64,000 bases of DNA from positions 1 to 64,000 of the forward strand of contig JAFYHQ010000014.1 in the NCBI GenBank assembly GCA_017539105.1, in the 5' to 3' direction. This DNA comes from Erysipelotrichaceae bacterium (GTDB lineage: Bacteria > Bacillota_I > Bacilli_A > Erysipelotrichales > Erysipelotrichaceae). Positions 7,163 through 64,000 of this stretch are shown here, piece by piece. Made by a program: the position numbers and the translations under genes. The stretch's first letter is position 1. Each line of letters begins with the position of its first letter. The notes below the pieces were generated by a model that saw only the letters and a program-made list of their open reading frames with translations, was not told the DNA's origin and did no database searches.

Positions 7163-8167
7163 ATGGCTATTAATTATGTTAGAGCGGATATCACGACCCT
7201 GAAAGTAGATGCGATCGTCAATACGGCGAATCCTCTTCCCGTCATAGGAGGCGGTACGGATTCTTCGATCTATGAAGCGGCAGGAAAAGAAAGGCTGCTG
7301 AAAGAACGCAAGAAGATCGGCAGCATCGATGTGGGCGATGCCAAGTCGACGTCAGGTTTCGATCTATGCAGGATCATCATTCATACGGTAGGACCCAGAT
7401 GGAACGGCGGAAACGAGAACGAATCCGAGCTTCTCAGAAGCTGCTACAAGAAATCATTGGAACTGGCAAAGGTTGAACAATGCAGGTCGATCGCTTTTCC
7501 TTTGATTTCGACCGGTATCTACGGCTTTCCGAAAGAGGAAGCCCTGAATATCGCGACCAGCGAGATCAATGCATTCCTGATGAAACACAATATGGATGTG
7601 ACGCTGTGCATCTTCGATGAGGATTCCTTTGCCCTGTCAGGCAAGATCGCCAGCATCATCAAAGAGATGGTCGACAAAGAAGAAGCGCATAAGAAGCTGA
7701 AGCAGGAATATGGAGTTTACTATGACACGGTCATGGATCGTTCCCGACGGGCGAAACTCTTAGATACGCAGAAGAAACCGTCAAGGAACTATCACTACCG
7801 TTTTTCAGACAATGATGCAAGTTTCGTAGATATGGTGAACTATTACGTCAGGATACTGGATGAAAAGCCGTCCGAGATCTACAAACGCGCATGGCTTCCC
7901 AGAAGAACGTTTTCCAGGATCATATGCGGAAACTACTCACCAAAAAAAGACACGGTATTTGCCCTGTGTCTTGCGTTAAAACTCAGCGTGGAACAGACCG
8001 TGGATCTGCTGTCCAGGAACTCGATGGCTTTCAATCCATCGGATCCTTTTGATGAGTTCATCTATTACTGCGTCTTAAGAAAGGAATATGACCTGAAAGA
8101 GATCAACAAAGGATTGTCTGCCAAGGGCATAGAAAAACGATTCGAGAATAAGAAGGATGTTTTTTAA
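7163..8167 (+). CDS. macrodomain protein with C-terminal HTH domain
   Basis: Residues 1-165 form a macrodomain: VDAIVNTANP is the adenine/ribose loop, GGGTDSSIYEAAG the diphosphate loop, and PLISTGIYGFP the second conserved glycine loop. These should bind and possibly hydrolyse ADP-ribose or a related metabolite. Residues about 215-300 carry an XRE-like HTH (IYKRAWLPRRTFSRIICGNYSPKK and a following helix). GAGGT precedes the ATG. The architecture suggests a regulator sensing an NAD-derived ligand. It is divergent from the hydrolase operon and shares its intergenic region. Confidence 0.85.
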   Translation: MAINYVRADITTLKVDAIVNTANPLPVIGGGTDSSIYEAAGKERLLKERKKIGSIDVGDAKSTSGFDLCRIIIHTVGPRWNGGNENESELLRSCYKKSLELAKVEQCRSIAFPLISTGIYGFPKEEALNIATSEINAFLMKHNMDVTLCIFDEDSFALSGKIASIIKEMVDKEEAHKKLKQEYGVYYDTVMDRSRRAKLLDTQKKPSRNYHYRFSDNDASFVDMVNYYVRILDEKPSEIYKRAWLPRRTFSRIICGNYSPKKDTVFALCLALKLSVEQTVDLLSRNSMAFNPSDPFDEFIYYCVLRKEYDLKEINKGLSAKGIEKRFENKKDVF

Positions 8168-8190
8168 ACTGTTCCGATTCAGTATGAATG

Positions 8191-8283
8191 TTACAGTCTG
8201 TGTTTCATGTCTCCCGTTTCGGAATCGATCACATCGAAACTGACGCCGATCCGGTCATGGAGTTCTTTTATCAATGGATTCAT
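8191..8283 (-). CDS. possible small ORF (30 aa)
   Basis: ATG at 8283 is preceded by AGAGG and opens a 30-codon frame (MNPLIKELHDRIGVSFDVID...) ending in TAA. It lies tail to tail with the macrodomain gene. The amino-acid composition is protein-like, but there is no homology evidence. Confidence 0.3.
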   Translation of the reverse strand: MNPLIKELHDRIGVSFDVIDSETGDMKHRL

Positions 8284-8389
8284 CGTGTTACCTCTTCTGT
8301 CTTAATTATAACGGCATCCCTGTTTCGTTTACTGCGAGCAGGGATTAAAATAAAATAGAAAAGCTCAAGATGAGCTTTACGATATTCCT

Positions 8390-8869
8390 TCAGTCGATAT
8401 GTCCGACCACCTGATAGGATCTCTCCGTGTACTGCATGATCTCGATCTTGTTTCCATCCGGATCATGGATCCACATCTGCCAAGTCTCCGAAGGGCCTTT
8501 GGAAGGTTTGCTATCCGGGACGATTCCATTCTCTTCCAGGGCCCTTTTTGTTTCGAAGATATCATCGACTGTCAGGGAAAAATGGGAGTAGCCGAGCCTG
8601 CTGTTCCAAGCCACGTCGTTCGTCTGACCTTCTTTGGCAGGAAACAGCTCAATGAACTGTCCCGGAGTCAGTTCGATGTACACGTTGAAAATGTCTTCCG
8701 GATCGTTTTCGGCCAAGGTGGCCATCTGCGGACGGTCGGTTCTGCCTTTGTAAGACTTGTTGCGGACGAGTACTTTCTGTTTCAGGCCTAGCTTATGGCA
8801 GTAGAAATCGATCATTTCTTCCATATGATCGGTATAAAAAGAGATATGCATCAATGCGTTGAATTTCAT
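8390..8869 (-). CDS. VOC (glyoxalase/bleomycin-resistance fold) family protein
   Basis: The 159-residue protein has two beta-alpha-beta-beta-beta modules of the VOC fold. N-terminal ALMHISFYTDHMEEMIDFYCHKLGL supplies the first metal-binding His, and SHFSLTVDDI and IHDPDGNKIEIMQYT supply the second His and the terminal Glu. VOC enzymes are metal-dependent lyases, isomerases or dioxygenases. The substrate cannot be told from sequence. It is transcribed leftward downstream of the esterase gene. Confidence 0.8.
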   Translation of the reverse strand: MKFNALMHISFYTDHMEEMIDFYCHKLGLKQKVLVRNKSYKGRTDRPQMATLAENDPEDIFNVYIELTPGQFIELFPAKEGQTNDVAWNSRLGYSHFSLTVDDIFETKRALEENGIVPDSKPSKGPSETWQMWIHDPDGNKIEIMQYTERSYQVVGHID

Positions 8870-13834: not shown

Positions 13835-13908
13835 TGGCATCCCGACTTCGATTCGAACGAAGATCCACAGTTTTGGAGACTGTCATTCTGCCATTGAACT
13901 ATCAGGAT
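13835..13908 (-). tRNA. tRNA-Trp(CCA)
   Basis: The acceptor ATCCTGA/TCGGGAT, anticodon stem-loop ACAGT-CTCCAAA-ACTGT (CCA), T-arm CTTCG-TTCGAAT-CGAAG, discriminator G and encoded CCA are present. It reads UGG, not UGA. Confidence 0.92.
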
Positions 13909-57583: not shown

Positions 57584-57957
57584 TCAACTTTTAAAATATG
57601 AATAACTGATTATCTATTAATTTAGTTTAAATTCTAGAAGGAAATAGGACCGAATCAGAAACGTTTCGTTCCTTTTTAATATTTCAATAAACCATATTGA
57701 AATATACCCTAGATAAAACAAAATCACCCCTAAGGGTGACTTGAATTTAATTCTGGTGCCAACTACAGGAATTATGATGCCATGTGGGCATCATAGAAAC
57801 GAACCCGTAACCTACTGATTTTCGGCTCTTTTGAAGGATTGAGCCATTACTTTTTTTGAGAAATCTTCTCAAAATCTTCTCACAGATAACAAAGAAAAAT
57901 AAAAGAAAGGAAATCATGCCAAAAGAGGACAAATCATCAACTTTCAACAACTTTTTA
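57584..57957. other. intergenic region with tRNA-like fragment and hairpins
   Basis: The 374-nt region holds a TCACCC/GGGTGA hairpin at 57723-57740 and, on the minus strand, a tRNA-like 3' end (GAAAATCAGTAGGTTACGGG...GTTGGCACCA, 57753-57820) with an inserted GATGCC/GGCATC hairpin. No full tRNA can be folded. It could be an attachment-site remnant of the accessory element to the right. Confidence 0.35.
57861..57882. repeat. two tandem 11-bp direct repeats
   Basis: AAATCTTCTCA occurs twice back to back, next to the tRNA-like fragment and upstream of a WYL gene that reads away from it. Tandem short repeats of this kind are seen at recombinase arm sites. Confidence 0.5.
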
Positions 57958-58992
57958 TCATTTTATATCGTCATAGATACTCTTTATATACAACTTATAA
58001 TCTTCTGCTAATTCTTTCGGTTCTAATATCTTCACTTTTGAACCAAAACCGGCAAGCCAAGAGTAAAACTGATTGCTTACCATTACTTTTGCGATTAACG
58101 TAAAATGGTTTTCATCGTATCTCTGGATGTTTTCTTTGCCAAACCTATCAATAACCGTATATAGCAAATCATTTGTAAAAAGCAATTTAACAAGCATTCT
58201 GTCGCCAATCCACATATTGAAGGTTTCTTTGAAGAAATCATTAAAGTTAATCATTCTGTATTCTTCAAATCCTTCTCTTTCTTCTTCAACTTCAAAGGTC
58301 TTTTCCATACGGTCAATTCTGTATGGGATGATACTTTGAAAATAGGAGTTATAAGCTAAAAGGTAGTAATTGCTTTCACTCATCAATATCTGGTAAGGGG
58401 AGACGACATACTCTTTGCCTTGCCTTCTGCTGACTTTTTCAATTTTTCCTTTGTCGTTGAAAGTGTAATTCTTATATACAAAAGATAATTTATGATTATG
58501 TTCTATCGCATCGTTGATGCTTCCCAGAAGTAAAAGAATATCGGTGTCTGTCTTTGTTCTGCCAAGCGTATAGACATTGATATCTAAAAGTTTTTCTTTT
58601 TCGTGGATACTTCTTAATGACGCGACTTTTTCTTTCAGTTCATTTGATTTTTTGTGTGATATGCCTTTTGATGAATTGATTGCCTCAATCAAAAGTTGTA
58701 TATCTTCATACTCAAACGGTCTTTGAATTATCTTCCATCCGCGATTGTAGTATTCATCGCTTTTATCAATGACATATCCAAAATCATTGTCATTCTCTTC
58801 TTGGATTTGAAAAAACGTATCAAGTTGGTGAATATCTCTTAATACAGAGCGATATTCCGGCGGGTCAGTTTCAATATCGCTGATGCGTTCAAGTATATCA
58901 TCTGTAGTTAATGGGTGTTTATCATCCGTTTCTTCTATCAGTATTTTTGCGACTAATAGAGATTTGAACTTTTGATTTTCTTTTTTTGGCAT
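57958..58992 (-). CDS. WYL-domain transcriptional regulator
   Basis: The 344-residue protein has an N-terminal winged HTH (HPLTTDDILERISDI, YRSVLRDIHQLDTFF), a WYL domain (about 160-235; HNHKLSFVYKNYTF, SNYYLLAYNSYFQSIIPYRIDRM) and a WCX domain (VKLLFTNDLLYTVIDRFG). It uses TGG for Trp throughout and ends TGATAA. It is the first gene of the accessory region's recombinase-bearing part and may control it. Confidence 0.85.
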   Translation of the reverse strand: MPKKENQKFKSLLVAKILIEETDDKHPLTTDDILERISDIETDPPEYRSVLRDIHQLDTFFQIQEENDNDFGYVIDKSDEYYNRGWKIIQRPFEYEDIQLLIEAINSSKGISHKKSNELKEKVASLRSIHEKEKLLDINVYTLGRTKTDTDILLLLGSINDAIEHNHKLSFVYKNYTFNDKGKIEKVSRRQGKEYVVSPYQILMSESNYYLLAYNSYFQSIIPYRIDRMEKTFEVEEEREGFEEYRMINFNDFFKETFNMWIGDRMLVKLLFTNDLLYTVIDRFGKENIQRYDENHFTLIAKVMVSNQFYSWLAGFGSKVKILEPKELAEDYKLYIKSIYDDIK

Positions 58993-59091
58993 CCGTAAAA
59001 ATTATAACATATATAAGAAAAGCCCTCAGTGGGCTATCTGTTTCATATTATTATCGTACTAATAATAGGATTTCTTCACTTTCTCCTTAAA

Positions 59092-59268
59092 TTACTTCTG
59101 AATACACTTTATCTTTTTAGGACATTTTGCATCAGCTGGAATATGCCATGGTGAACCTTTTTTATCTTGCGTAGCATTAGGAATTAAACCACGAGCACAC
59201 CACTTTCTAATTGTTTCTTGAGTGTACCCCCATTTTTCTGATGCTACTTTTGTTCCAATATCAGCCAT
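59092..59268 (-). CDS. small MerR/excisionase-like HTH protein (58 aa)
   Basis: A 58-residue frame (MADIGTKVASEKWGYTQETI...IPNATQDKKGSPWHIP) has the HTH of MerR-like excisionases: GYTQETIRKWCARGLIPNA. It lies 1 nt after the SHOCT-type gene on the same strand, so it is in that operon. It is below the usual ORF length cut-off. Confidence 0.7.
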   Translation of the reverse strand: MADIGTKVASEKWGYTQETIRKWCARGLIPNATQDKKGSPWHIPADAKCPKKIKCIQK

Positions 59269-59269
59269 A

Positions 59270-59863
59270 TTATTTTAAATCTAACAATTCTTTCTTTTTT
59301 CTCTCAAATTCTTCTTGTGTTATAACACCTTCTTTACACAAATCCGATAATTCTTTTATTTCTTTTGTATAGTCGGTTTTTTTCTTGTTAAAGAATTTCT
59401 GCACATTAAACTTTTTTCCTTCTAAGAAAAGAATGTACATTGAGAAAAGCGGCAATAAAATTAAGAGATATCCAACAAGTGTCATTCTGTATGTAGCAAC
59501 TGTTTTAGGATATACATCCTTATAAAAAATTGAGAATAAAAACGGAATTATAATGAATACAAGATTAAGAATCCCGCTTATTTTTTTGATAATATCTTTT
59601 TTAAGGAAAACACCAAGAAGATAGAATGCAAAAATGATAATTAAAATACCAGGGATTATTAAATCAATGTAATCGTATAATCCAGGTACTTGAAGCATTA
59701 TAAGCCATAATATATTAAACTTATCGTTTATGTCTTGGCCAAGCACCCCAGTGTCAATATATTTCAGTATTCTATGAACAGCCAGTTTTTGTTTTGAATC
59801 AATAATAAGAATAATTAATTCCAGAACAAACAACGAGATAATTAAAATATTTCTTTTTTTCAT
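59270..59863 (-). CDS. membrane protein with C-terminal SHOCT motif
   Basis: The 197-residue protein starts at MKKRNILIISLFV, behind AAGGTGG, and has about four membrane segments. The C-terminus (EIKELSDLCKEGVITQEEFERKKKELLDL) is a SHOCT motif, common at the ends of phage and plasmid membrane proteins. It is translated immediately after a lipoprotein gene. Confidence 0.75.
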   Translation of the reverse strand: MKKRNILIISLFVLELIILIIDSKQKLAVHRILKYIDTGVLGQDINDKFNILWLIMLQVPGLYDYIDLIIPGILIIIFAFYLLGVFLKKDIIKKISGILNLVFIIIPFLFSIFYKDVYPKTVATYRMTLVGYLLILLPLFSMYILFLEGKKFNVQKFFNKKKTDYTKEIKELSDLCKEGVITQEEFERKKKELLDLK

Positions 59864-59864
59864 T

Positions 59865-60323
59865 TTAGTCCACCTTTTGGAAACGAACGGTTGCACCAGT
59901 TGTCCAATCACTAGAAGAAGAATATGTTAGATAAAACGTTAATTGAACTTCTCCATCCTTTGCATAAATATTTGTATTTAAGCATTTAAATCCGCTAAAA
60001 ATCTGGTCTGCAGGGCCATTTCCAGAACCCCACGTTATTATAGTATTGTATTGATTTCCTTTGCCTTTGAAATTCCCTGTATAGGATGAACCATTTAAAT
60101 GGACATCTACTATTTTTGCTTTTTCAATTACTACATAAAACTCATCGTTTACTAGAGAATCCCATTTATAGGTGGTTTCTCCTCTTTTCCACGTTTGAAA
60201 ACCATTGACAACATATTTTCCGTTGATATTATTTGGGTCGCTTGAACAGCCTGTAATGCTTAATAAAACGGAAAAGATTATCAACGCTAGGAATAGTATT
60301 CTAATATTTCGTTTTCTTTTCAT
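59865..60323 (-). CDS. predicted lipoprotein
   Basis: The 152-residue protein has a signal peptide and lipobox (IFSVLLSITGCSS) and a beta-rich domain with DSLVNDEFYVVIEKAKIVDVH. It is the first gene of a leftward operon with the SHOCT and MerR-like genes, and its promoter faces the XRE regulator across a palindromic operator. Role unknown. Confidence 0.75.
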   Translation of the reverse strand: MKRKRNIRILFLALIIFSVLLSITGCSSDPNNINGKYVVNGFQTWKRGETTYKWDSLVNDEFYVVIEKAKIVDVHLNGSSYTGNFKGKGNQYNTIITWGSGNGPADQIFSGFKCLNTNIYAKDGEVQLTFYLTYSSSSDWTTGATVRFQKVD

Positions 60324-60399: not shown

Positions 60400-60426
60400 A
60401 AATACAATCAATGTAAGGTACTTAAA

Positions 60427-60642
60427 ATGCTTTACAAACGAATTAGGGAATTGCGTGAGGATAATGATTTAACACAGAAACAGATGGGCGAAATTCTTTC
60501 TTGTAGTCAAAGAGTTTATAGTAATTATGAAAGAGGAGAACTTGATATTCCTACTGATATTTTGATTAAACTCGCAGATTATCATGAAGTGTCCGTTGAT
60601 TATCTGCTAGAAAGAACAAATAATAAGAAAACATACAAATAA
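60427..60642 (+). CDS. XRE-family HTH regulator
   Basis: The 71-residue protein starts at MLYKRIRELREDNDLTQKQ, behind AAGG, and is almost entirely an XRE HTH (LTQKQMGEILSCSQRVYSNYERGE) with a short dimerisation tail. The palindromic operator upstream fits it as its own repressor. It converges on the resolvase gene. Confidence 0.9.
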   Translation: MLYKRIRELREDNDLTQKQMGEILSCSQRVYSNYERGELDIPTDILIKLADYHEVSVDYLLERTNNKKTYK

Positions 60643-60680: not shown

Positions 60681-61268
60681 TTATTGTTCCAGTAGAGAAA
60701 GATATTTATATATTGTTTTTCTTGAACGCTCACATAATCGCGATAAATCGGTGATGTTGAGAGAACCATTTTTATATGCGGGGTAATGCTTATAGAAGAT
60801 TACCGGTATATCGTCTTTTGTGGTTCTTGGTCTGCCAATCGGTGAGCCCTTTGCCTTTGCGTTTGCCATTCCTGATTTGACACGCTCGCGTATGATGTTG
60901 AGTTCTAATTCAGCAAATACACCACTCATCATAATAAATGCGTTTGTCATTGGGTCTAAACTTCCAGACCGACAATCAACTGTTATGCTTCCTATGATAT
61001 CAAGGCAGATTTTCTTTTGTTTAACAGCATCAATGATTTCGCACAATTTCTTTGTGCTTCTGGCAAGTCGTGATACTTCAAGAGTGAATATCGTATCTCC
61101 TTCTTTGACTGTTTCCAATAGAAGAGATAATTGCGGTTTGACGGAGCTGTCGCCGTGTTCGTATTCAAATCGTATATCTTGTGCTCCCGCATCCTTCAAT
61201 TCTCTTATTTGCCTGTTGATATCTTGCTTATCTTCGTTGGTGCTGGCTCTGGCATAACCATAAATCAT
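60681..61268 (-). CDS. serine recombinase (resolvase/invertase)
   Basis: The 195-residue protein is a small serine recombinase: YGYARASTNEDKQDINRQIRELK carries the nucleophilic Ser, LEVSRLARSTKKL and FAELELNIIRERVKSGMANAKAKG the other core motifs, and a C-terminal HTH follows (LNITDLSRLCERSRKTIYKYL). It would resolve or invert DNA. It ends in TAA and is in the accessory region. No inverted target repeats were recognised. Confidence 0.9.
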   Translation of the reverse strand: MIYGYARASTNEDKQDINRQIRELKDAGAQDIRFEYEHGDSSVKPQLSLLLETVKEGDTIFTLEVSRLARSTKKLCEIIDAVKQKKICLDIIGSITVDCRSGSLDPMTNAFIMMSGVFAELELNIIRERVKSGMANAKAKGSPIGRPRTTKDDIPVIFYKHYPAYKNGSLNITDLSRLCERSRKTIYKYLSLLEQ

Positions 61269-61315: not shown

Positions 61316-61597
61316 TTAGTGGCTGATGGTAAATCTTTTGCTTGAAACTTCCTTTGTGAAGTTCTTGTAGAGGGCTTCGCCCATCTCAACTTTGAACCTC
61401 TTGGTATCAAATCTTGATGATAGGACATCAACGTAGCGGATGATATAATCGCCAACGGTCAGTTCTTCAACGTCCCTGATTGTCATTTCTTCTTTGATGC
61501 TGTCCTTGATTGCTTCCGCTTCTGCTTTGAGTTCTTCAATCATTGCTTCCAAGTCATTCAATTCTTCAATTCTGTGAGTTAATGTAATCTGTGTCAT
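61316..61597 (-). CDS. phage/ICE-type helical protein
   Basis: The 93-residue protein is a charged helix (EELNDLEAMIEELKAEAEAI) followed by a beta part (VEELTVGDYIIRYVDVLSSRFDTKRFKVEMG, FTKEVSSKRFTISH). Similar proteins are common as small genes in phages and conjugative elements. The role is unknown. It lies divergent to the HTH gene across three operators. Confidence 0.6.
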   Translation of the reverse strand: MTQITLTHRIEELNDLEAMIEELKAEAEAIKDSIKEEMTIRDVEELTVGDYIIRYVDVLSSRFDTKRFKVEMGEALYKNFTKEVSSKRFTISH

Positions 61598-61758: not shown

Positions 61759-61974
61759 ATGATTAAATATGACAAGCTTTTTGAACGGTTGAAAGCATAC
61801 GGTTATAACACCAACAGGATAAGAAAAGAACACATTATTGGTGAAAGCACACTTACTGCTATCAGGCAAGGCAAGGGCGGTTTGTCTCACAAAAACATTG
61901 ACAGGTTATGTGAGTTGTTAGAGTGTCAGCCAAACGACATAATGGAATACGTGAAAGAAGACAAGGCGAACTGA
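61759..61974 (+). CDS. Cro/CI-like HTH regulator
   Basis: The 71-residue protein is a small HTH repressor (YGYNTNRIRKEHIIGESTLTA, LSHKNIDRLCELLECQPNDIMEY) of the Cro/CI type usual in phages and ICEs. Three operators lie upstream. It ends at TGA, which gives the normal family length; reading through that TGA would run into palindromes. So TGA appears to be a stop here, unlike in the genes from 62.2 kb on. Confidence 0.85.
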   Translation: MIKYDKLFERLKAYGYNTNRIRKEHIIGESTLTAIRQGKGGLSHKNIDRLCELLECQPNDIMEYVKEDKAN

Positions 61975-62123
61975 TGCCTTGTTTTATACGGTTTTCGTAT
62001 AACTGGCATTTTCAGTGAAAAAATGCTTTTCGTGTTTCTATTTCAATTTCGGCACCTGACGGTGCTGTGTCGGCTCTGACGGTGTGCCGAAACCAAATGC
62101 TAACGGAAACATTTTCTTACAAT

Positions 62124-62172
62124 AAAAAAATCGCACACAGAAGGGCTTAAACTGCCAAAATCTGTGTGCGAT
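62124..62172 (-). terminator. terminator at the end of the recoded module
   Basis: A perfect 12-bp stem ATCGCACACAGA/TCTGTGTGCGAT is followed by TTTTTTTATTG on the minus strand, downstream of the gene ending at 62202. Confidence 0.85.
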
Positions 62173-62201
62173 ATTCGTATAGGGTTTTTGGAAACAACCG
62201 C

Positions 62202-62678
62202 TTATCTTTTCTTGTTGGAAAACATATCATCAATTATCTTGCCGATAGATTGCCCTAATGCTTTGCCAAAGCGTTCGCCAAGTTTGGTGGCTCAATGTTT
62301 CTTATGACTTGCTCTCTTGTGATTTACATTGTAAGAGCCAATTTCGTTGATGCTGTTAAAGATATCATAAGCGCTTTCTTCTATCATTTCGCTAACATCT
62401 TCTTCTACTCAACGCACGATATCTGTTTGTATCTCGTTGAGTGCTTGCGTTGATGCTTCAATCAGTGTCTTTTCTAACGCTTGCTTGTTAAATATATAAC
62501 GGTCTCGCTTCGGTTCTATTCTCAATGGGTAGCCGAGGTCATCCAATCGGTGAATATAACTGTCTATCAGTTCTTCGCGTGAAGTTATGTATTCGTATTT
62601 GATTGTTCCGTTGCCTGATTGCCCCAATTGCTTTTTGAGGTTGTGTTGATGATGTGCCATTTTATCGCTGACGTTCAT
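62202..62678 (-). CDS. hypothetical protein, continuous only if TGA is read as Trp
   Basis: The start at MNVSDKMAHHQHNLKK follows AAGGAG at 10 nt. Read with the standard code the frame stops at TGA 62409-62411 (residue 90) and again at TGA 62292-62294 (residue 129); read as Trp it gives 158 residues ending in TAA and followed by a strong terminator. The C-terminal part (WATKLGERFGKALGQSIGKIIDD) remains protein-like after both TGAs. No family recognised. It overlaps the upstream gene by 17 nt. Confidence 0.6.
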
Positions 62679-62886
62679 TTCTGTAAAACTCCTTGATATA
62701 TACATCTAATTTGTATCGGCTCTCATAGCCAAGTTTTGTGACTCCTGATAGTCAATTATAAAAAGACGTTTCCTTGATGCCGATTGCGGATGCGATATCT
62801 TTGTATCTTACATCGCTGCCTCATTTAAGAAACCGGCATTCTCCTCTTAATCTTTCTTGTTCTTCTTTAATAGGTGGTAAGCACAT
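62662..62886 (-). CDS. HTH protein with two in-frame TGA codons read as Trp
   Basis: The start at MCLPPIKEEQERLRGE follows GGAG at 8 nt. TGA lies at 62821-62823 (residue 22) and 62752-62754 (residue 43). With TGA as Trp the 74-residue protein reads GECRFLKWGSDVRYKDIA and then IKETSFYNWLSGVTKLG, an HTH in which a Trp after SFYN is common in the family. Ends in TAA. This gives independent support for reading TGA as Trp. Confidence 0.65.
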
Positions 62887-63003
62887 AATTATTTCTCCTT
62901 TCTGTGCGGGGGTGAGTTTCAGGACAACACAACAAAGTCGTTGATAATTGCTCGTTGGTGCTCCAAACTGCTTCCCAAAGTATTTTTTATTGATTATGAA
63001 GTA

Positions 63004-63495
63004 TTAGAAGACAAACTCTTCTGCTGGATGAAAAGAGAGGGGCTCAACGTTGTCGTTGAGGCACTCTCCTTTATTTATCTTTGTATTGTTCGTTATATTG
63101 TTTCTATGCTGATTTTCGCACGTCTCTTGTTCGGTTTCCGTATAAGAAGGTGTGCGAATATCGTATAGTTCTTTGGCTGATGGTGTGCGGTTTTCGCACC
63201 CCTGATATATGCTCTTCTGGTGGATGACGTTTTCATCAAAATCTATGAAACCTTTTTCTTTGAGCTCTCGTAGCCCATCGTGAAAGGTTGTTCTTTTGAT
63301 GCCCCATTTGTGTTTGGCATCAGCAGGTGATATGTCCCACAAGATGCCGTCTTTATTCTTCAAAAGATAGCATCACACTTTGAAACCCGAGCCGTTTAAT
63401 ACCGAGCAGGCATAAGCCATTTCTTCTTCGCCATAAATAAGATAGATGCCTGATATCTTCTTATCTATTCTTACTGTTCTTTGATTTTGATACAT
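63004..63495 (-). CDS. replication-type HTH protein with one in-frame TGA read as Trp
   Basis: The start at MYQNQRTVRIDKKISG lies within the end of the previous gene. TGA at 63373-63375 is residue 41; as Trp the sequence reads GSGFKVWCYLLKNKDGILWDISPADAKHKWGI, which fits plasmid replication initiator-like HTH proteins (FKLWxYLxKN...DxSPADAxxxWGI). Two TGG codons also encode Trp. With standard code only a shorter frame beginning TTG would remain. 163 residues in all. Confidence 0.65.
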
Positions 63496-63682
63496 AGCCA
63501 TTGCGTTCAAACCTCACTATCTTATTAACTTCTCTTCTTAATTCTTCACTGTCTTCAAAATAGAAGACGTGAAACTCTGGCTTATTTTTGTTTCTGCCTG
63601 TGCCGATACATTTATAACCTCGGCTTTCAAGTTCTTTCGCCAATCACAAGGCGCATATTGTGTAGTTTGTATTTTGATACAT
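63461..63682 (-). CDS. DUF5659-like protein with in-frame TGA read as Trp
   Basis: The start at MYQNTNYTIC follows AAAGGAG at a good distance. TGA at 63644-63646 is residue 13 and gives ICALWLAKELESRGYKCIG, followed by PEFHVFYFEDSEELRREVNKI, similar to DUF5659 proteins. 73 residues, ending in TAA. Under the standard code the strong ribosome site would serve only a 12-codon frame. Confidence 0.6.
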
Positions 63683-63760
63683 TTTTCTTACTCCTTTCAA
63701 ATTATCTACATAATAATTTTCCTCATATTTTTTATGAAACACAAATTATACGCATTAAAG

Positions 63761-63801
63761 AAAAAAGCCCAATCAGTATTTCTTTTTTCTACTGGTCGGG
63801 C
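63761..63801 (-). terminator. terminator after the partial gene at the window edge
   Basis: An imperfect 12-bp stem GCCCAATCAGTA/TACTGGTCGGGC is followed by TTTTTTCTTT on the minus strand. Confidence 0.7.
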
Positions 63802-63830: not shown

Positions 63831-64000
63831 CTATGCCGTGTATATTGGCTCCTGATGAGGCGCAATCCACATTTGAAAGAGTTTGCCATTAGATAGTTCA
63901 ACGGTGATTGTGTGCTTACAGAACGGTTGCTTGCGTGCTGTTTCCATCAGCAGTTCTTGTGCTTTGAAGATTGCTTCAATATCATTTGATGCTTTTGTTT
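63831..64000 (-). CDS. partial gene at the right edge, C-terminus only
   Basis: An open minus-strand frame enters from the right edge and ends at TAG 63831-63833 after about 55 codons (SNDIEAIFKAQELLMETARK, then KLFQMWIAPHQEPIYTA). It uses TGG for its one Trp. The start lies outside the window. The family is not recognised. Confidence 0.6.
   Translation of the reverse strand, partial: TKASNDIEAIFKAQELLMETARKQPFCKHTITVELSNGKLFQMWIAPHQEPIYTA

What the first reader, a model, noticed from the sequence alone, without database searches (positions are those of the whole stretch)
62202..63682. Accessory module apparently using TGA as tryptophan
Seen: four consecutive genes carry six in-frame TGA codons (62292, 62409, 62752, 62821, 63373, 63644) but no premature TAA or TAG and no frameshift; each has a good ribosome site or overlap and a proper TAA stop. 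Trp fits context at SFYN-W-LSG and FKV-W-CYL. TGG is also used. Chromosomal genes here use TGA as stop (ATGA overlaps). Known: TGA-to-Trp recoding occurs in Mycoplasma and in some phages of Bacillota. Inferred: a replication-type element from a code-4 host, or one that recodes late genes.
Basis: partly seen in the sequence, partly recalled or inferred. Interest (0 to 1): 0.88.

Follow-up and report, generated by a model that had tools for sequence, protein, structure and literature searches.

The report
Mobile element with a second code
A small mobile DNA element in gut bacteria keeps one of its gene groups in a different genetic code from the rest of itself and from its host, so those genes can probably be made only when something else in the cell, perhaps an invading virus, changes how the code is read.

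Summary
Four minus-strand genes (62202-63682) carry six in-frame TGA. They sit in an 8.65-kb integrated element (contig 57753-66404) of a standard-code Erysipelotrichaceae genome that has RF2 and often uses TGA as stop. Related elements occur in five more genomes; the six carriers span three genera. The central operon genes counted have 33 TGA and 10 TGG for tryptophan. The shared flanking genes have none before their stop: 0 TGA to 21 TGG in the 23 that end in TAA or TAG, and 9 others end in TGA. TGA columns alternate with TGG and mostly Tyr or Phe, and homologues outside the elements have TGG at three of them; dN/dS is 0.11-0.22. In the operon TGA:TGG matches ordinary A:G wobble, so UGA must be read well as Trp when it is translated, yet no UCA tRNA was found on the elements. 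Best reading: a satellite-like element whose replication/nuclease operon is gated by an alternative code supplied in trans, most likely by a UGA-recoded phage. Two rat-gut plasmids show the same design with TAG, including a terminase small subunit. The helper is inferred, not seen.

The parts
63461..63682 (-). g4, 73 aa, DUF5659-like; TGA at codon 13 (63644)
   Evidence: Pfam DUF5659 E 9.9e-5, just under its cut-off; TGA in all three orthologues; dN/dS 0.11
63004..63510 (-). g3, 168 aa, phage DnaD-like helicase loader / replication protein; TGA at codon 46 (63373), TGG at 58 and 69
   Evidence: phrog_186 E 9.1e-8; TGA column is TGG in four homologues; column 69 swaps TGG and TGA
62662..62886 (-). 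g2, 74 aa, small helix-turn-helix protein; TGA at codons 22 (62821) and 45 (62752)
   Evidence: weak HTH matches below Pfam cut-offs; TGA at the codon-22 column in 3 of 3 orthologues
62202..62705 (-). g1, up to 167 aa, unknown; TGA at codons 99 (62409) and 138 (62292)
   Evidence: codon 99 is TGG in G010 and Phe in G281; codon 138 TGA in 3 of 3; fold prediction too poor to use
62118..62180 (-). hairpin plus U-run, terminator-like, closing the operon
   Evidence: stretch folded: MFE -24.2, z -6.6; not listed by the pattern scan
63748..63800 (-). hairpin plus U-run between g5 and g4, terminator-like
   Evidence: stretch folded: MFE -10.8, z -2.0; seen by eye also in G010; not listed by the pattern scan
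61759..61974 (+). Cro/C1-type repressor-like gene, ends in TGA
   Evidence: HTH_26 E 6.9e-10; first stop is TGA in G000, G010 and G212; in G000 and G010 an open frame of 43 and 48 codons follows, weakly alike
61316..61597 (-). 93-aa conserved phage-type protein, standard code
   Evidence: phrog_6244 E 1.9e-13; ends in TGA in G222, G212, G180
60681..61268 (-). serine recombinase (resolvase/invertase type), standard code
   Evidence: Resolvase E 8.4e-29
60415..60642 (+). second HTH regulator inside the element
   Evidence: HTH_3 E 1.9e-12
57958..60323 (-). cargo: WYL/WCX regulator, small HTH, SHOCT-domain membrane protein, lipoprotein-like protein; standard code
   Evidence: the last has no Pfam match; lipoprotein by its N-terminus
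57753..57820 (.). left attachment site: copy of tRNA-Thr 3' end, split by a 27-bp insert; partner at contig 66364-66404
   Evidence: direct repeats of 20 and 21 bp
63831..64000 (-). g5 (to 64022 in the contig); beyond the window g6 64039-64509, g7 64509-64940, integrase 65134-66231 (+), tRNA-Thr 66365-66440 (-)
   Evidence: integrase E 7.7e-24

Best explanation
This is a family of small integrated, phage-satellite-like elements of Erysipelotrichaceae that are written in two genetic codes. The genes that keep the element in the host (tyrosine integrase where present, repressor, serine recombinase, g5-g7) are in the standard code. One operon (g4-g3-g2-g1 here; a nuclease-like gene and neighbours in a sister genus) is written with UGA as tryptophan. 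In an uninfected host RF2 should end translation at the first UGA, so the operon should be silent at the protein level. It is translated when UGA is decoded efficiently as Trp, and I think that happens on infection by a phage that recodes UGA: the phage supplies the decoding, and the element then makes its replication and nuclease proteins and exploits or fights the phage. Shown: TGA = Trp in this operon, its restriction to this operon among the genes compared, its presence in six genomes, a standard-code host. Inferred: silence in the uninfected host, supply of the decoding in trans, the phage helper, the satellite life style.
For: Operon genes counted in six elements: 33 TGA to 10 TGG. Shared other genes, rule-free subset (23 that end in TAA or TAG): 0 TGA to 21 TGG, Fisher p 1e-9; if all 32 are read on through TGA to the next TAA or TAG: 12 to 35, p 2e-6. 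In the operon the TGA share (0.77) equals the A share of other two-codon boxes (0.71, p 0.41). Up to five UGAs in one gene (n1 of G222), too many for weak readthrough. Swaps of TGA with TGG and mostly Tyr or Phe and TGG in homologues outside the elements. dN/dS 0.11-0.22 for g1-g4 between G000 and G010, constraint also after the first TGA. RF2 with SPF motif in 6 of 6 hosts. No UCA tRNA on the elements and fetched flanks by ARAGORN or Rfam. Operon proteins related to a phage replication protein and to a nuclease-like phage gene that lies upstream of terS-terL. Integrase, tRNA attachment site, no structural gene recognised. Parallel: two rat-gut plasmids with TAG-free Rep3 genes and TAG-bearing operons that include a terminase small subunit, a protein expected to be of use only with a phage.
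Against: No helper was found. Portal matches in 272 family genomes: 47, none with an in-frame stop. TerL matches in 266: 29, of which two had stops, one split between two frames and the other a weak match. None of eight scans of viral contigs found a relative with in-frame stops (the two relatives found checked). No capsid-size or packaging gene was recognised in the TGA elements. The host-wide test for a UCA tRNA was flawed (minimum gap too long for 4-nt variable loops; control failed), so supply from the host is not excluded. G212 and G180 showed no tyrosine integrase or g6/g7 near the operon. The repressor of G000 and G010 has an open, weakly alike stretch after its TGA (pN 0.31, pS 0.44, 39 codons), so readthrough there is not excluded. 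The g4 TGA column is Arg in a distant relative.
Confidence: 0.55

Rival explanations
1. The decoding is supplied by the host or the element: a missed UCA tRNA-Trp, or a host state in which RF2 is low and tRNA-Trp(CCA) reads UGA.
For: The carrier genomes are incomplete (89% for the own genome). The genome-wide UCA pattern misses tRNAs with a 4-nt variable loop, the type that host tRNA-Trp(CCA) has. The RF2 gene of G000 has a UGA frameshift site, so RF2 level is variable in principle.
Against: A standing suppressor would damage the 36% of contig ORFs that end in TGA. Host tRNA-Trp(CCA) has a full 5-bp anticodon stem in G000 and G281, not the 4-bp form that reads UGA (PMC13092985, passages). Five UGAs in one gene need efficient decoding. 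Flanking genes avoid TGA before their stops.
Confidence: 0.2
2. The element's productive host is a code-4 bacterium (Mycoplasmatales-like) and the copies in Erysipelotrichaceae are resting or stranded.
For: In a code-4 host all of the operon would be read through without a helper.
Against: The g6/g7 family was found in no other of 395 genomes sampled over the class (whether code-4 species were among them was not checked) and g4 only in this family among 315 genomes of the order. Flanking genes never use TGA as Trp before their stop, as expected if they work under the standard code.
Confidence: 0.12
3. Decayed or spurious frames: TGAs are nonsense mutations or the genes are shorter standard-code genes.
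For: g4 could restart right after its TGA (TTG in G000 and G010, ATG in G281), and the column is Arg in a distant relative.
Against: The orthologous frames stay open through the TGAs to homologous ends without frameshift; purifying selection before and after the TGAs; TGA-TGG swaps; homologues with Trp there.
Confidence: 0.02
4. UGA encodes selenocysteine or another residue.
For: UGA can be Sec or Gly in other systems (recalled).
Against: TGA faces TGG in three gene columns and otherwise mostly Tyr or Phe, less often Leu, Ile, His, Gln or Pro; no Cys or Gly in the operon comparisons.
Confidence: 0.01

Closest known systems
Recoded (code 4 / code 15) gut phages
   Same: Stop codon used as sense codon in a standard-code host; recoding confined to part of the genes in some (the late-gene model is recalled from Ivanova 2014 and Borges 2022, not read here).
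   Different: Some of those phages carry the matching suppressor tRNA: 11 of 73 predicted table-4 and 375 of 715 table-15 phages (PMC11210395, passages). This element is 8.65 kb, shows no structural genes and no such tRNA, so the decoding should come in trans.
Phage satellites (PICI and similar)
   Same: Small, integrated at a tRNA, integrase, repressor, phage-type replication protein, no virion genes recognised.
   Different: Helper detection in known satellites is by protein or transcription signals (recalled); here the signal would be a change of genetic code. Helper dependence untested.
Rat-cecum plasmids pRGI00117 and pRGI00100 (HG796263.1, HG796260.1)
   Same: TAG-free Rep3 backbone plus genes with an in-frame stop codon; pRGI00117 carries a distant relative of n1.
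   Different: Stop is TAG, probably Gln; plasmids, not integrated; encode a terminase small subunit.
Code-4 bacteria (Mycoplasma, Spiroplasma)
   Same: UGA = Trp.
   Different: Hosts here have RF2 and use UGA as stop.

Membership tests
TGA-to-Trp recoded genes | TGA columns are Trp in homologues | tested here: met
   g3 column 46: TGG in 4 of 7, TGA in 2, Tyr in 1; n1 GWF column: TGA in 3, TGG in 2 of 5. Not met for g4: Arg in L064
TGA-to-Trp recoded genes | TGA and TGG exchange between orthologues | tested here: met
   g1-99, g3-69 and n3 column 69/72
TGA-to-Trp recoded genes | UCA-decoding tRNA in the same element or genome | tested here: inconclusive
   none on elements and fetched flanks; genome-wide pattern flawed
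Code-4 host | loss of RF2, TGA no longer a stop | tested here: not met
   RF2 in 6 of 6 carriers; 42 of 117 contig ORFs end in TGA
Recoded phage | virion structural genes and genome-wide alternative code | tested here: not met
   no structural gene recognised in the 8.65 kb; only the central operon recoded
Phage satellite | integrase, attachment site, replication gene, no structural genes | tested here: met
   for the window's element; replication role by similarity only
Phage satellite | TerS or capsid-redirecting gene | tested here: not met
   no convincing match in Pfam, PHROGs or NCBIfam for the TGA elements (g2 has only weak TerS-family scores); TerS is present in the TAG plasmids
Phage satellite | induction and packaging by a helper phage | not testable with these tools
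   needs culture or reads
DUF5659 (g4) | score over the Pfam gathering cut-off | tested here: not met
   22.6 against 23.6 bits; resemblance only
DnaD-like helicase loader (g3) | match to the phage family | tested here: met
   phrog_186 E 9.1e-8, 4.4e-6 and 5.8e-6 in three elements

The most novel reading that the evidence does not exclude
The helper phage's genetic code itself is the induction signal. A satellite (or defence island) stores its attack operon in the code of its phage, so that the proteins exist only in a cell whose translation the phage has already rewritten. The same principle arose at least twice, with UGA-Trp in Erysipelotrichaceae chromosomes and with UAG-Gln in gut plasmids that carry TerS.
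Probability: 0.5. Interest if true: 0.96.

Novelty: new variant of a known kind. Interest (0 to 1): 0.9.

Why it matters
Stop-codon recoding in phages is known, but why it pays and who reacts to it is open. An element with two codes, divided by operon, would mean that phage recoding is visible to other elements in the cell and can be used as a trigger. That makes the question testable with reporters, and it gives a simple genome signature (standard-code maintenance genes beside stop-bearing operons) by which more such elements can be found. Gene callers that use the standard code break these operons into fragments, so they are likely to be overlooked.

Tried and rejected
Chance frames and pseudogenes: rejected on conservation and dN/dS. 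Selenocysteine or glycine: rejected on the replacing residues. 4-bp anticodon-stem tRNA-Trp (idea from PMC13092985): host tRNA-Trp has 5 pairs. Code-4 prophages in the family through portal and TerL models: none convincing. Viral scans with g3, g1, A1, n1, A8 and A4: no relatives; A3 and A5 gave one viral contig each (L064, L082), whose relatives have no in-frame stop. The overall code of L064 was not settled: ORF density is 0.66, 0.78 and 0.75 under codes 11, 4 and 15, a noisy measure. tblastn with g1 (phages), g3 (plasmids) and n1 of L022 (phages): no match. Defence library: nothing convincing. Structure of g1: mean pLDDT 49.8, not used, no fold search made. Genome-wide UCA-tRNA pattern: 44 hits in six genomes (24, 20), no tRNA by ARAGORN at any, but the control with the host's own tRNA-Trp failed because the minimum gap was one base too long, so I draw no genome-wide conclusion. 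First codon count had a wrong frame for the G010 repressor and read the terminal TGA of one recombinase as sense; it is replaced. In one search operon genes were read to TAA or TAG and the others to the first stop of any kind, so its terminator comparison and part of its zero are by construction; one search gives counts free of this. n3 and n5 were kept out of the main count because their ends are ambiguous and the G222 n5 start was mis-entered; with n3 the operon count would be 35 TGA to 16 TGG. G053 (weak g4 match with one TAG), G014 and G256 (distant g6/g7 matches) and the second G281 copy (L024) were left out of the counts.

Full report
What is there. The six TGA codons are real and in frame. 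The window is the first 64 kb of a 130.9-kb contig of an incomplete genome. The four genes are the central operon of an integrated element. Its tyrosine integrase (65134-66231, ends in TGA) lies beside tRNA-Thr at 66365-66440; a split copy of the tRNA 3' end lies at 57753-57820. The element is 8652 bp with 35% G+C against 46% for the rest of the contig. Order from the tRNA side: integrase, then on the other strand g7, g6, g5, g4, g3, g2, g1; a divergent Cro/C1-type gene; a 93-aa phage-type gene; a serine recombinase; an HTH gene; cargo (WYL regulator, membrane protein, lipoprotein-like protein). Hairpins with U-runs lie between g5 and g4 and after g1; the simple pattern scan did not list them and its counts were at chance level.

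Host. The genome has RF1 and RF2; the RF2 gene has the UGA-C frameshift site in its start region. RF2 with the SPF motif is present in all six carriers. In the contig 42 of 117 greedy ORFs of 150 aa or more end in TGA. The host tRNA-Trp found is CCA with a 5-bp anticodon stem. The host code is standard.

Relatives. Searching 147 relatives with g3 gave one genome besides the own, G010, 68% identical with three TGAs. Its contig has the length of DESX01000057.1, labelled Solobacterium sp. UBA3303. The element there is collinear and sits at a different tRNA-Thr. g7 found relatives in 6 of 272 family genomes including the own. G281 (contig length as JAFULN010000015.1, Erysipelotrichaceae RGIG4604, roe deer rectum) has the whole g1-g7 series, with g1-g4 37-41% identical to the window's, and g1, g2 and g4 keep a TGA in the same column as in G000 and G010. 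G222, another genus, has integrase, g7, g6, repressor, 93-aa gene and recombinase around a different operon: a nuclease-like gene n1 with five TGAs and smaller genes with TGAs. n1 was found in 3 of 272 genomes, all of that genus: G222 (5 TGA), G212 (3) and G180 (4). 'Nuclease-like' rests on the conserved D...ExK pattern (motif recalled) and on weak family scores.

TGA is tryptophan. Between orthologues TGA faces TGG in g1 (codon 99), g3 (69) and n3 (69/72), and otherwise mostly Tyr or Phe, less often Leu, Ile, His, Gln or Pro. In the g3/n3 alignment the column of the window's TGA is TGA in 2, Tyr in 1 and TGG in 4 of 7 rows, one of them a viral contig, L082, whose integrase, terminase, n1 and n3 readings have no in-frame stop. 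In n1 the invariant GWF tryptophan is TGA in the 3 elements and TGG in L082 and in pRGI00117, and a second TGA column is TGG in L082. Against this, a distant g4 relative in viral contig L064 has Arg where g4 has TGA. dN/dS for g1-g4 between G000 and G010 is 0.14, 0.15, 0.22 and 0.11, and n1 between G222 and G212 is 0.13; sequence after the first TGA is constrained as well.

Two codes in one element. Over the six elements the operon genes counted (g1-g4 in three, n1, n2, n4 in three; 21 genes) have 33 TGA and 10 TGG. The shared other genes (32) have 33 TGG and no TGA before their stop; 9 of them end in TGA. Because the two groups were read by different rules, I recounted: the 23 other genes that end in TAA or TAG, for which the rule does not matter, have 0 TGA to 21 TGG (Fisher p 1e-9 against 33:10); if all 32 are read on through TGA to the next TAA or TAG, they have 12 TGA to 35 TGG (p 2e-6). 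Related elements are not independent, so p-values are only a guide. The stretches read beyond the 9 TGAs are mostly 3 to 18 codons; the exceptions are one recombinase (82) and the repressors of G000 and G010 (43 and 48), which are weakly alike (pN 0.31, pS 0.44), so I cannot exclude readthrough of that repressor. G000 alone: 6:2 against 0:8, p 0.007 (a row unaffected by the correction). In the operon the TGA share equals the A share in five other A/G-ending codon pairs (0.77 and 0.71, p 0.41); in the other genes the A share is 0.67. So in the operon TGA and TGG are interchangeable, which means that when the operon is translated UGA is read well, and that it is not usefully translated under the standard code. 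The other genes behave as genes translated under the standard code.

Where does the decoding come from? ARAGORN found no UCA tRNA on the whole contig or on the fetched stretches of the other carriers, and Rfam found there only tRNAs already seen and a T-box. The genome-wide pattern is inconclusive because its control failed. Recoded prophages were not seen in the family: 47 portal matches in 33 of 272 genomes without stops, 29 TerL matches in 25 of 266 genomes, with stops only in G147 (2 TGA, the rest of the gene in another frame) and a weak match in G003. Eight scans of IMG/VR gave two relatives, neither with in-frame stops. A UGA-recoded phage remains the simplest supplier in trans, since UGA-recoded gut phages are reported, though rarer than TAG-recoded ones (PMC9610469, passages: 21 against 5706 contigs; PMC10879173, passages), and only 11 of 73 predicted table-4 phages carry the matching tRNA (PMC11210395, passages). 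This step is inference.

A parallel with TAG. A distant n1 relative lies on the rat-cecum plasmid pRGI00117. There the Rep3 gene and its neighbour have no TAG, but the n1 relative has four in-frame TAG and a terminase small subunit (phrog_2538, E 6.7e-29) has two; ORF density on the record is 0.86 with TAG as sense and 0.50 without. pRGI00100 is built alike: terminase small subunit with one TAG (E 5e-30), Rep3 with none, and further TAG-bearing readings; its density differs little (0.71 and 0.68). TAG faces CAA (Gln) in one TerS column and Lys, Asp, Arg, Glu or TAG in others. The paper on these plasmids does not use the words stop codon, genetic code or terminase (PMC3913684, term search of the main text). 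A terminase small subunit should be of use only with a phage, so these plasmids point to a phage-linked switch; by analogy the TGA elements do too. Which phage would serve is unknown.

Print. Searches for satellites with recoded genes or code-dependent induction showed none in their listings from the held open-access library; Borges 2022 was not held. This is not proof that nothing is in print.

Verdict. The recoding is certain enough to treat as fact (about 0.97). That it is confined to one operon and needs decoding from outside the element is likely (about 0.8). That a recoded phage is the supplier and the element a satellite or defence island is the best but unproved reading (0.55). The recount weakened two side arguments (terminators, repressor stop) and did not change these odds.

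Noticed in passing
L083 (HG796263.1 145-7163) and L084 (HG796260.1 342-7581): Two rat-gut Rep3 plasmids whose accessory genes, including a terminase small subunit, carry in-frame TAG while the replication genes have none.
   Followed up: partly
L022 12916-13014, L062 5843-5962, L063 11895-11993: Partial copies of the 3' end of the serine recombinase gene as direct repeats flanking repressor, 93-aa gene and recombinase, as if this segment were itself a mobile or switchable unit.
   Followed up: no
window 57773-57799: A 27-bp palindrome-like insert splits the left attachment site.
   Followed up: no
contig 64039-64940 (L003 2039-2940): g6 and g7 are paralogues of an unknown family, seen in 6 of 272 family genomes and, in a sample of 395 class genomes, only in the own.
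   Followed up: partly
L023 and L024: G281 holds a second, contig-end copy of the element (C72) whose g1 has a TAG near the contig end.
   Followed up: no
window 63641-63646; L023 7678-7683: In g4 the codon after the conserved TGA is TTG or ATG, so a restart there is conceivable.
   Followed up: no
window 61972-62103; L009 12033-12179: After the TGA of the repressor gene an open code-4 frame of 43-48 codons is weakly alike in G000 and G010; conserved DNA or a readthrough tail.
   Followed up: partly
G147:C1:1969116-1969722: A TerL gene with two TGAs and a frame split, probably a decayed prophage.
   Followed up: no
window 13835-13908: Host tRNA-Trp has a U11-A24 pair, which I recall as the arrangement of the E. 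coli Hirsh UGA suppressor and as common in Bacillota; effect untested.
   Followed up: no
L064 around 8001-8712: A 156-kb viral contig has a DUF5659-like reading without in-frame stops beside a replication-like protein, as g4-g3 here.
   Followed up: partly
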